DNA from: Microbacterium sp.
Lineage (GTDB): Bacteria; Actinomycetota; Actinomycetes; Actinomycetales; Microbacteriaceae
Length of the DNA: 64,000 bases
Direction: 5' to 3'
Assembly: GCF_031178445.1 (NCBI RefSeq)
Contig: NZ_JAPSIY010000001.1
Span: 393,237 to 457,236, forward strand
Under the pieces are notes generated by a model that was not told where the DNA came from, ran no database searches, and was given only the letters and a program-made list of their open reading frames with translations. The position numbers and the translations under genes were made by a program. Of this stretch, positions 24,923 through 26,358 are shown piece after piece. The stretch's first letter is position 1; every line of letters begins with the position of its first letter.

Positions 24923-25085
24923 CCGATCCTCCTCGATGTTCGACCTGCGGCTGCGGGCGGCGTCGCGCTCATGTGCGACGTCACGCCCCTGCGACGAGAG
25001 TGCGCCGCCGACCCCGAAGGGCCGGCGGCGCACCGATCTGCGACCGGATGGCCTGGTTCAGGCCGATCACGAGCCGCAACGGCTG

Positions 25086-25265
25086 TCATTTCTCGTCGTC
25101 GAAGGCGTCCTTGACGTCGTCCCCGAGCTTCTTGGCCTCGGCCTTGGCCTGATCGAGCTTGCCCTCGGCCTGGAGGCTCTCGTTGTCGGTCGCGTCTCCG
25201 ATGCCTTCCTTCGCCTTACCGACCAGCTTCTCGGTGTTGTGCTTGGCGTCGTCCATGGCTCCCAT
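25086..25265 (-). CDS. CsbD family stress protein
   Basis: A 59-residue, highly charged helical protein (MGAMDDAKHNTEKLVGKAKE, then GDATDNESLQAEGKLDQAKA). CsbD proteins are small general-stress proteins of unknown biochemical role. GGGAG lies about 6 nt upstream of ATG 25265; a second ATG at 25256 is possible. It faces away from the gene-free region that follows on the right, so any promoter for it lies at about 25270-25320. Confidence 0.88.
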   Translation of the reverse strand: MGAMDDAKHNTEKLVGKAKEGIGDATDNESLQAEGKLDQAKAEAKKLGDDVKDAFDDEK

Positions 25266-25346
25266 GTCACTCCCTTCGTCGGGGACGGTCACTGACCGTC
25301 CTGGGGAATGACAGCGTGTCACCGAGCGCGCACAGGGGCCAAGGGA

Positions 25347-25376
25347 TTGACAGGCGCGCTGGGACCGCGCTAGACG
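25347..25376 (+). promoter_or_regulatory. Strong promoter at the start of the gene-free region
   Basis: TTGACA (25347-25352), 18 nt, TAGACG (25371-25376). The -35 box is a perfect consensus, the only such one I noted in an intergenic region here. It points rightward into a stretch with no credible coding sequence, predicting a start near 25383. Confidence 0.6.
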
Positions 25377-25382
25377 AGGGAA

Positions 25383-25760
25383 GGGGTGCGGAGCGCTGCG
25401 ACCGACTGCCGGACGGGGCGGGTCTCGCGGATGCTGAGAGCACGCGGTCGGAGGGGGACCTCCGCCTCACTGTGCTTTCGTCCCCGCTCCGACCTGCAAT
25501 CCCCTGTTAACCCTTCACTCTCGGAATCGCAAGCCCCATGGGCTCGGCTCATCCCCTCCTCTAGGGGTGAAGGTGCATGCATGGGGGATCGATCGCGTCC
25601 GCTGATCCCCAGTCAGCGCAGGCCCTCCCCAGTGGCCCGACGATCCACGCATGCGCGTGGCCCTCTTGTTTAGTTCAGTCCCCGATGTGCTATACGAGGG
25701 GGCCGCTCTCATCATCGCACCGATTTGCGATTTTGTCCCCCAAACGGGGGACAAATTTTT
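25383..25760 (+). ncRNA. Putative structured ncRNA of about 380 nt (Ms1/6S-like candidate)
   Basis: The region between a consensus promoter and a canonical terminator has no convincing reading frame but many complementary segments. GTGCGGAGCG (25386-25395) can pair with CGCTC (25704-25708) and CGCAC (25716-25720), closing the two ends. GGTCGGAG plus GGGGA (25446-25458) pairs with TCCCC and CTCCGACC (25481-25494). ATCCCC and CCTTCAC (25499-25518) pair with GTGAAGG and GGGGAT (25567-25589) around an internal loop. A small 6C-like RNA follows directly. Size, end pairing and this neighbour resemble actinobacterial Ms1 (MTS2823), which binds RNA polymerase core; that identity is inference without sequence alignment. 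Confidence 0.5.
25732..25760 (+). terminator. Canonical intrinsic terminator of the ncRNA
   Basis: TTTGTCCCCC (25732-25741), AAAC loop, GGGGGACAAA (25746-25755), then TTTTT. It is a perfect 10-bp stem with a T tract only on the plus-strand side, the clearest intrinsic terminator in the window, yet no protein gene lies upstream on that strand. Confidence 0.88.
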
Positions 25761-25779
25761 GAGATTCCATGTATGCTGA

Positions 25780-25846
25780 TTCCGACGCACCCTCCGGTCG
25801 TCTTCGGCCCCCACCGCTCCCCCCGCGGTGGGGGTCATCAATTTTC
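25780..25846 (+). ncRNA. 6C-like small RNA candidate
   Basis: Two adjacent stem-loops lie between a TATGCT -10 box (25772-25777) and a T run. The first pairs CGAC with GTCG (25783-25800) around the C-rich loop GCACCCTCCG. The second pairs CCCCCACCGC (25808-25817) with GCGGTGGGGG (25825-25834) around TCCCCCC, a loop with exactly six C, and ends in AATTTT. The 6C RNA family of Actinobacteria is defined by two stem-loops with runs of six or more C and a terminator; here the first run is interrupted by a T. Family membership needs a covariance-model search. Confidence 0.55.
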
Positions 25847-25919
25847 GGGCGCGGCACGGTTCCGCCCCCACCTCCACCGACCCGTCTGCAACATTTGTGT
25901 CACCATCTGCATCGCCCTA

Positions 25920-25947
25920 TTGCCTCCCCGGCGCTCTGGGATAGCGT
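25920..25947 (+). promoter_or_regulatory. Promoter of the cold-shock gene
   Basis: TTGCCT (25920-25925), 16 nt, TAGCGT (25942-25947). It predicts a 5' leader of about 47 nt before the cspA start, shorter than the long leader of E. coli cspA. Confidence 0.55.
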
Positions 25948-26001
25948 TAGCGGCAGTCGGTGCGTCCTGCGTCGGCGTAGCAATCAGCAGAACGGCAGTA
26001 A

Positions 26002-26208
26002 ATGAGCACCCAGGGCACGGTCAAGTGGTTCAACTCGGAGAAGGGCTTCGGCTTCATCTCCCCCGATGACGGAGGCGCCGACGTGTTCGCGCATTACTCC
26101 GCGATCCAGTCTTCCGGCTACCGCTCGCTCGACGAGAACCAGCGCGTCGAGTTCGATGTGGCGCAGGGCCCCAAGGGCCTGCAGGCTGAGAACATCCGCC
26201 CTCTCTGA
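26002..26208 (+). CDS. Cold-shock protein, CspA family
   Basis: A 68-residue single OB-fold RNA/DNA chaperone. [15 protein letters not shown] holds RNP1 (KGFGFI) and VFAHYSAI holds RNP2. Length and lack of extension are typical of CspA-type proteins. The ribosome site before ATG 26002 is weak. It is monocistronic with its own promoter and terminator, and lies directly downstream of the two putative small RNA genes. Confidence 0.96.
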
Positions 26209-26219
26209 GGCGGAATGGG

Positions 26220-26260
26220 GAACCCCGTCGGAAGCTGCCAACGCAGAACCGGCGGGGTTC
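26220..26260 (+). terminator. Terminator of the cold-shock gene
   Basis: GAACCCCGTCGG and CCGGCGGGGTTC form a 12-bp stem with one G-U pair and a 17-nt loop, followed by TCTG. Confidence 0.6.
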
Positions 26261-26358
26261 TCTGCATCCCGGGCCGCGCCCGGCCTCGTGCCGTGCGCGG
26301 ATGCCGGCCTGCAGAAAGTCGGACGGCGTTCGGCCGCGCCGGGTCAGCCGCGTCCGGG

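What the first reader, a model, noticed from the sequence alone, without database searches (positions are those of the whole stretch)
25347..25760. Unannotated structured RNA gene of about 380 nt, candidate Ms1/6S-like RNA
The only long gene-free stretch in the window opens with a consensus -35 box (TTGACA-N18-TAGACG) and closes with the window's best intrinsic terminator (10-bp stem, TTTTT). No protein frame lies between. The predicted 5' end (25386-25395) can pair with 25704-25708 and 25716-25720 just before the terminator, and two more long-range stems lie inside (25446-25494; 25499-25518 with 25567-25589). GGGGATC at 25584-25590 can also pair with GATCCCC at 25604-25610, an alternative fold. 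In Mycobacterium tuberculosis the Ms1 homologue MTS2823 and the 6C RNA are near neighbours; here a 6C-like RNA starts right after the terminator.
Basis: partly seen in the sequence, partly recalled or inferred. Interest (0 to 1): 0.85.

Follow-up and report, generated by a model that had tools for sequence, protein, structure and literature searches.

The report
Triple C-loop RNA family in Microbacterium
Beside a cold-shock gene, this bacterium (likely a Microbacterium, judging by its relatives) carries a conserved, predicted RNA gene whose predicted fold shows three C-rich loops; it belongs to a family found so far almost only in that genus, matches no Rfam family at its threshold, and likely controls other genes by pairing those loops with their messages.

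Summary
The conserved unit is 25569-25706: a three-way junction plus a long hairpin, with UCCCC at three loops. Of 48 pairs 18 have changes on both sides; 0 of 500 shuffles did as well. Its model matches 108 of 198 genus genomes. Paralogues sit at a second locus: of 60 stretches read, 15 lie by a cold-shock gene, 37 by another gene, none by both. The own genome has one on another contig. A model of the second-locus RNA matched none of 245 family genomes outside the genus. No Ms1- or 6S-like fold.

The 5' hairpin 25444-25500 is a separate conserved module. The 'terminator' (25733-25754) is a perfect dyad: in 46 of 46 aligned rows (window included) it precedes a 6C-like RNA, 17 nt from its -10 in 45, and it precedes promoters of other family RNAs; more likely an operator.

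Best mechanism (inferred): a C-rich-loop sRNA that pairs with G-rich mRNA sites, like mycobacterial 6C/B11. A crude test found no GGGGA enrichment at start codons. No transcript has been shown.

The parts
25347..25376 (+). TTGACA-N18-TAGACG, promoter-like, upstream of the 5' hairpin module; it could also drive the downstream RNA in this genome
   Evidence: box shared with L003, L066/L169, L181, and TTGACG in L154, L011 (by eye)
25444..25500 (+). 5' hairpin module with a conserved CUGUGC stretch and 3' CCUGC; separate structured element, in a subset of the genus
   Evidence: R3 match, E 3.6e-5 (window not in the model); R3 in 19 of 198 genus genomes at E<=0.01, own genome missed; 7 of 26 pairs with both-side change in 9 relatives, but RNAalifold's covariation term is +0.16, no net support
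25562..25567 (+). TAGGGG, degenerate remnant of the -10 (TAnnnT) found directly before the RNA in 42 of 46 aligned rows (not in the window row)
25569..25706 (+). triple C-loop RNA (core of the finding)
   Evidence: A1/R1: 18 of 48 pairs with both-side change, 0 of 500 shuffles; R1 in 108 of 198 genus genomes at E<=0.01
25574..25655 (+). junction stem P1: 25574-25594 with 25639-25655
25600..25618 (+). hairpin P2, loop with UCCCCA (25606-25611)
25622..25636 (+). hairpin P3, loop CCCCA (25627-25631)
25659..25704 (+). long hairpin P4, apical loop GUCCCCGA (25678-25685); predicted 3' end or terminator-like hairpin
   Evidence: only site with <=2 mismatches in the own genome
25772..25777 (+). TATGCT, predicted -10 of the 6C-like RNA, 17 nt after the dyad
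25783..25843 (+). 6C-like RNA: two hairpins with C-rich loops
   Evidence: RF01066 25.0 bits, E 0.9, below the gathering score of 47
26002..26208 (+). cold-shock-domain gene downstream (context)
   Evidence: PF00313 E 4.7e-31; present in 13 of the 15 loci

Best explanation
Window 25569-25706 holds a conserved, predicted RNA gene of about 140 nt whose predicted fold displays UCCCC at three hairpin loops, and it likely works as a trans-acting small RNA that would tune mRNAs by pairing these loops with G-rich stretches, as mycobacterial 6C/B11 does. Shown by sequence comparison: the covarying fold, the conserved C-loops, the paralogues at a second locus, and the dyad at fixed spacing before the 6C-like promoter. 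Inferred: transcription as a unit of its own; P4 as the 3' end; the dyad as an operator, probably an activator site, because the paralogues without it have a -35 (19 of 20 with 4 or 5 of 6 letters of TTGACA, mostly CTGACA) while promoters with it show by eye no -35 besides the dyad's own GGGACA; base-pairing as the mode of action; and joint control with the 6C-like RNA. In this genome the RNA's own -10 is degenerate (TAGGGG), so it may be read from the upstream TTGACA promoter.
For: Structure: 18 of 48 pairs with changes on both sides, 94.8% of cells paired, 0 of 500 shuffles equal on any measure, slid controls at most 44.5% paired (11 sequences). Spread: 108 of 198 genus genomes at E<=0.01, many with two hits. 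Paralogues: of 60 fetched stretches 15 carry the cold-shock gene, 37 the second-locus gene, none both, 8 neither. Twenty of the 37 aligned: 45 predicted pairs, 6 with both-side change; 20 of 20 have GGGATACCAT just before and 19 of 20 a -35 with 4-5 of 6 matches at 17-18 nt. Loops: the CCCC columns are 87-100% identical over 46 rows. Context: 46 of 46 rows followed by the dyad (<=3 mismatches) and the 6C-like motif; gap to -10 is 17 nt in 45, 16 nt in 1; 42 of these rows were taken in order of R1 score, 4 after reading their context. Mechanism by analogy: B11/6C C-rich loops pair with ribosome-binding sites (PMC10470900, passages); a C-rich loop in the B11 terminator is the seed in M. marinum (PMC12395582, passages).
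Against: No transcript is shown. GGGGA is not enriched before start codons (1.1% against 1.1%, rank 409 of 1,024 5-mers, 362 roughly called genes), so a general anti-Shine-Dalgarno role has no support. 90 of 198 genus genomes gave no R1 match at E<=0.01 (strict filters). In the wider 46-row alignment RNAalifold recovered only P1 and P4 (28 pairs, 13 with both-side change), P2 and P3 being badly aligned there. Three of 46 rows have only two CCCC tracts, and the U before CCCC in P2 and P3 is 67% conserved. The window's own -10 is degenerate. R1 was run only in the genus and the own genome (the family got no answer), so restriction to the genus rests on R2 and a P4 pattern.
Confidence: 0.6

Rival explanations
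1. Protein-binding sponge: the repeated UCCCCA loops titrate an RNA-binding protein, for example the neighbouring cold-shock-domain protein, in the manner of CsrB/RsmZ.
For: Three near-identical loop motifs in one RNA and two C-rich loops in the 6C-like neighbour; a CSD gene lies downstream; loop context beyond the Cs (AGUCCCCAAUG) is conserved in the second-locus RNAs.
Against: None of the 37 stretches with the second-locus gene holds a CSD gene like this one within the 2.4-6 kb fetched. CSD proteins are not known to me to prefer CCCC (recalled).
Confidence: 0.2
2. Cis-acting leader: the whole stretch is a long 5' UTR of cspA that senses temperature.
For: At locus 1 it lies upstream of cspA (csp start pattern found in 43 of 46 rows); cspA-type genes often have long leaders (recalled).
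Against: 37 of 60 fetched stretches have the RNA before another gene and no cspA. The 6C-like RNA with its own conserved -10 lies in between. A conserved TGCAACATTTG...TAGCGTTAGC block next to cspA looks like its own promoter.
Confidence: 0.08
3. The dyad 25733-25754 is the intrinsic terminator of this RNA, and the RNA is the single 380-nt transcript that the reader proposed.
For: Stem with T5 in this genome; TTGACA shared with some relatives; degenerate -10 before the RNA in this genome; the dyad follows gene ends closely in several loci (by eye).
Against: The T-run is absent in the other 12 aligned loci while the stem sequence is nearly invariant. The dyad is found without the RNA in L012 and L013. 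Fixed 17-nt distance to the 6C-like -10. It occurs upstream of promoters of other family RNAs.
Confidence: 0.25
4. Ms1 or 6S homologue that binds RNA polymerase.
For: Neighbourhood of a 6C-like RNA; stationary-phase sRNAs of this kind exist in actinobacteria (PMC4191392, abstract and section 15).
Against: Different length and fold; no 6S match; a paralogous family seen almost only in one genus.
Confidence: 0.03

Closest known systems
6C RNA (RF01066; B11 in mycobacteria)
   Same: C-rich apical loops (UCCCC..A); actinobacterial; here it lies beside a 6C-like RNA; probably pairs with G-rich RNA
   Different: Three loops with four C, three-way junction and long P4 of about 140 nt against two hairpins in about 75-100 nt; no RF01066 match at the RNA itself
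Ms1 / MTS2823
   Same: Non-coding RNA, 6C-type neighbour
   Different: About 304 nt, one long hairpin with bubble, RNA polymerase partner (PMC4191392); length and fold differ here, the partner was not testable
CsrB/RsmZ-type sponge RNAs
   Same: Repeated hairpins with one loop motif
   Different: Loop motif is UCCCC, not GGA; comparison recalled, no CsrA test made
scr3559 (6S-like RNA of Streptomyces)
   Same: Lies near a 6C RNA in an actinobacterium
   Different: scr3559 and 6C flank SCO3558 (PMC8539372, passages); the HAD family recalled for that gene is not matched near this window

Membership tests
6C RNA (RF01066) | Covariance-model score at or above gathering score (47 bits) | tested here: not met
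   No RF01066 match at 25569-25706 at E up to 10; the neighbour 25783-25843 scores 25.0 bits
6C RNA (RF01066) | Two stem-loops, each with typically six C (PMC4046766, passages) | tested here: not met
   Main RNA: three loops with four C. The neighbour has two C-rich hairpins, one loop with CCCUCC
C-rich-loop base-pairing sRNAs (functional class) | C tracts exposed in conserved apical loops | tested here: met
   CCCC 87-100% identical in the loop columns over 46 rows; exposure itself is predicted
C-rich-loop base-pairing sRNAs (functional class) | Complementary G tracts in ribosome-binding sites of targets | tested here: inconclusive
   No global enrichment of GGGGA (rough gene starts); specific targets not searched
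Ms1 | About 300 nt, long hairpin with central bubble and two short hairpins | tested here: not met
   Conserved unit about 140 nt, three-way junction plus hairpin; definition from PMC4191392 section 15
Ms1 | Sequence or covariance-model similarity to known Ms1 RNAs | not tested
   no Ms1 model or sequence was used
Ms1 | Binds RNA polymerase core without sigma | not testable with these tools
   needs co-immunoprecipitation
6S RNA (Rfam) | Match to a 6S covariance model | tested here: not met
   None at E up to 10 in 25000-26300 or at gathering over the window
Intrinsic terminator (25733-25754) | G+C-rich hairpin followed by a U run | tested here: inconclusive
   Met in the window, but the U run is not conserved in relatives

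The most novel reading that the evidence does not exclude
Microbacterium runs a dedicated network of C-loop RNAs (several paralogues plus a 6C-like RNA) under one regulator that binds the dyad TTGTCCCCC-N4-GGGGGACAA. The loops (GUCCCCAA) repeat the dyad's half-site (GTCCCCCAA), so the RNAs may feed back on their own regulator, or pair with transcripts that carry the dyad: an operator sequence echoed in RNA loops.
Probability: 0.12. Interest if true: 0.85.

Novelty: new variant of a known kind. Interest (0 to 1): 0.6.

Why it matters
It adds a structured RNA family, with paralogues, to a common genus; none of the papers listed by my two searches naming the genus or family with small RNAs (10 listed of 96; 12 listed of 18,664) was by its title about small RNAs of this genus. 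C-rich-loop regulation in actinobacteria is known to me mainly from one RNA, 6C/B11. Here the same loop idea appears in a different architecture, multiplied, and seemingly tied to one operator. That makes two questions testable: how such promiscuous-looking loops get specificity, and who controls them.

Tried and rejected
Ms1/6S: rejected on fold, length and Rfam; synteny via TIGR01490, a family recalled for the Rv3661 type, gave no support (an Rfam scan around that gene gave only two weak matches to unrelated families). Single 380-nt conserved unit: rejected for the genus, kept as possible in this genome. Protein coding: rejected. 6C orthology of the neighbour: doubtful, since G296 has both. 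Phage or plasmid carriage: the second-locus RNA of L109 has no match in 50,697 phage or 72,556 plasmid records; the window's own RNA was not tried. General anti-Shine-Dalgarno action: no support. Not done: R1 in the family (got no answer; R2 was run instead) and any model in other orders. A2, an alignment of 109 matches fitted to R1, was used for no count: it is fitted to the model and includes reverse-strand matches. L158 and L182, of the cspA-linked type, were left out of A4. Of 37 second-locus stretches 20 were aligned (A3); the more diverged types were not tested for covariation. Formal pair counts on the window-type 5' hairpins (A5, A6) were not made, those alignments being uncertain. Pfam and NCBIfam gave no name to the second-locus gene.

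Full report
WHAT IS IN THE WINDOW. Between a CsbD gene (minus strand; PF05532) and a cold-shock-domain gene (26002-26208; PF00313) lies a stretch without a convincing protein frame. Rfam at gathering threshold finds only a tRNA in the window. At E up to 10 in 25000-26300 it lists eight sub-threshold matches: a 6C match at 25783-25843 (25.0 bits, gathering score 47), no 6S, and on the + strand nothing inside 25569-25706 (two of 13-16 bits overlap it on the - strand).

EXTENT OF THE CONSERVED RNA. BLASTN of 25340-25850 in 58 genomes (own genome, genus and order) hit 14, the own included. In ten relatives the main match starts between query positions 196 and 233, that is window 25535-25572. Two more relatives match only from the dyad onward, and one only within the 6C-like part. 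The 5' part alone (25340-25545) gave matches at E<=0.01 in 39 of 198 genomes; beyond the own genome these are short, E 7.8e-5 or weaker, and scattered. Aligned upstream regions of 13 loci show conserved blocks: the RNA (not in L012 and L013), the dyad, and the 6C-like RNA before cspA.

STRUCTURE. Eleven homologues (A1) give one consensus fold. P1 (25574-25594 with 25639-25655) closes a junction with hairpins P2 and P3. A long hairpin P4 (25659-25677 with 25686-25704) follows. Of 48 pairs, 18 have changes on both sides; 94.8% of cells pair; none of 500 shuffles reaches any of the five measures; sliding the partners leaves at most 44.5% paired. In the window the loops of P2, P3 and P4 carry UCCCC (in P3 the U is in the closing pair). 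Over 46 rows the C columns are 87-100% identical and the U before them 67%, 67% and 98%; 3 of 46 rows have only two CCCC tracts. Against this, RNAalifold on the 46-row alignment A4 recovered only P1 and P4 (28 pairs, 13 with both-side change); P2 and P3 vary in length and are badly aligned there.

A PARALOGOUS FAMILY. Model R1 matches 108 of 198 genus genomes at E<=0.01 (strict filters, 90 without a match). 43 genomes, the own included, have a match of 72 bits or more (my count of the listing). Many have a second match of roughly 38-55 bits. In the own genome this is G000:C25:178763-178907 (43.8 bits). I took 60 stretches around R1 matches and read their contexts. Fifteen hold the cold-shock gene, 37 the gene that follows the own genome's second copy (L108:2947-3357), none both, and 8 neither. 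Twenty of the 37 were aligned (A3): they fold alike, 45 pairs, 6 with both-side change; 20 of 20 have GGGATACCAT just before the RNA, and 19 of 20 a -35 with 4 or 5 of 6 letters of TTGACA, 17-18 nt before TACCAT. Pfam and NCBIfam do not name the following gene. Rfam at E up to 1 has no match at these RNAs in the four loci tested (L108, L109, L113, L120). Model R2, built from A3, matched 2 of 249 genomes drawn from the family: both are among the 4 of the genus; none of the 245 others matched. A P4 pattern scanned over the GTDB contig collection gave 63 stretches: 61 are named Microbacterium or Microbacteriaceae; one is an Actinomycetes MAG whose contig length equals that of G261, a genus member; one is a Microthrixaceae MAG with a copy very like that of G261, perhaps misbinned. 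It is an inference.

THE 5' HAIRPIN. A model (R3) from nine relatives without the window (A7) finds it at 25444-25500 with E 3.6e-5. In A7 7 of 26 pairs have both-side change, but RNAalifold's covariation term is +0.16, that is no net support. R3 matches 19 of 198 genus genomes at E<=0.01. Thirteen of these lie 38-86 nt upstream of an R1 match; G294's lies about 190 nt before its 6C-like match; the other five (G351, 41.4 bits, and four of 26-28 bits) are near no listed R1 match. The own genome was missed there. TTGACA or TTGACG lies upstream in the window, L003, L066/L169, L181, L154 and L011 (by eye), but I did not see it in L002, L155, L157, L161 or L168. Since the second-locus paralogues stand directly behind a promoter-like box without this module, I read it as a separate element. 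Yet in this genome the C-loop RNA lacks the TAnnnT box that 42 of 46 rows have directly before it. So one transcript from about 25383 onward remains possible here.

THE DYAD. TTGTCCCCC-N4-GGGGGACAA with at most 2 mismatches is in 167 of 198 genus genomes, often in several copies; the reversed control pattern is in 3 of 198. The own genome has one exact site, and the next has 3 mismatches. In a family sample 60 of 249 genomes have it (4 of them the genus), mostly with 2 mismatches, against 10 of 249 for the control: outside the genus the signal is weaker. All 46 rows of A4 have it (at most 3 mismatches) within 80 nt downstream, followed by the 6C-like motif; the gap to a TAnnnT -10 is 17 nt in 45 and 16 nt in 1. 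42 of the rows were taken in order of R1 score; L161, L168, L169 and L181 were added after I had read their contexts; L158 and L182, of the same type, were left out. In a scan of the loci then held (at most 4 mismatches) 61 of 65 distinct sites before the 6C-like motif lie 30-31 nt from it. Fourteen sites lie before another family RNA: 12 are 19-21 nt from a -10, one 28 nt, one (L121) farther (gaps counted by eye). The same scan held 142 other sites, many of them loose matches, that I did not sort. This favours an operator, probably an activator site. Against that: in several loci it lies just after gene ends, as a terminator would, and I identified no regulator.

HOW IT LIKELY WORKS. B11/6C C-rich loops pair with ribosome-binding sites (PMC10470900, passages, one from the abstract), and a C-rich loop in the B11 terminator is the seed in M. 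marinum (PMC12395582, passages). By analogy I infer base-pairing of UCCCC loops with G-rich mRNA sites. My own test does not support a general effect at start codons: GGGGA occurs in 1.1% of 362 roughly called upstream regions (window and 62 stretches) and in 1.1% of control positions, rank 409 of 1,024 5-mers. The top 5-mers there (TAGCC, AGCCT) look like -10 boxes of leaderless genes, which would limit classical Shine-Dalgarno targets. A protein sponge is the main rival.

NOVELTY. No Rfam family reaches its threshold on it. Seven literature searches listed no paper that by its title treats such an RNA in Microbacterium; I saw capped listings (20 of 29, 10 of 96, 12 of 18,664, 6 of 6, 10 of 274, 12 of 362, 10 of 475). 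I read passages of five papers and the abstract and one section of a sixth. Subscription journals are largely not held. I rate it a new variant of a known kind: C-rich-loop sRNA with a new architecture.

Noticed in passing
window 25733-25754; loci L048-L077, L067, L062, L015: The dyad TTGTCCCCC-N4-GGGGGACAA recurs across the genus, in tandem in L067 and L062, and with one mismatch on a 15-kb contig of G022 (L015). It looks like an operator of an unidentified regulator.
   Followed up: partly
L059, L065, L069, L075, L076 around position 1500: In these five genomes the dyad sits beside a strong GC-rich hairpin; in four of them (not L069) an AAGCGTTA block lies near. The gene was not identified (by eye).
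   Followed up: no
L061, L060: Variant 6C-like RNA behind the dyad with loop UAUCCCCCCCUAG.
   Followed up: no
L278-L289: Higher-scoring 6C RNAs exist in several Microbacterium genomes; G296 has one besides the cspA-linked 6C-like RNA, so the latter may be a paralogue.
   Followed up: partly
362 roughly called genes of window and L190-L252 (without L244): TAGCC, AGCCT, GCCTG and GATAG are the 5-mers most enriched at -18 to -4, which suggests many leaderless genes with a TAGCCT-like -10.
   Followed up: no
L108:2947-3357: The gene after the second-locus RNA has no Pfam or NCBIfam match; it looks SseB-like to me (recalled, untested). It is found in 37 of 60 stretches.
   Followed up: partly
L120, L121, L123, L124, L125, L160, L162, L189, L244: Further types of the RNA with neither the cold-shock nor the second-locus gene nearby (L244 not in that test); in L244 after what looks like a DNA glycosylase gene; dyad-like sites before the promoter in L123, L124 and L244.
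   Followed up: no
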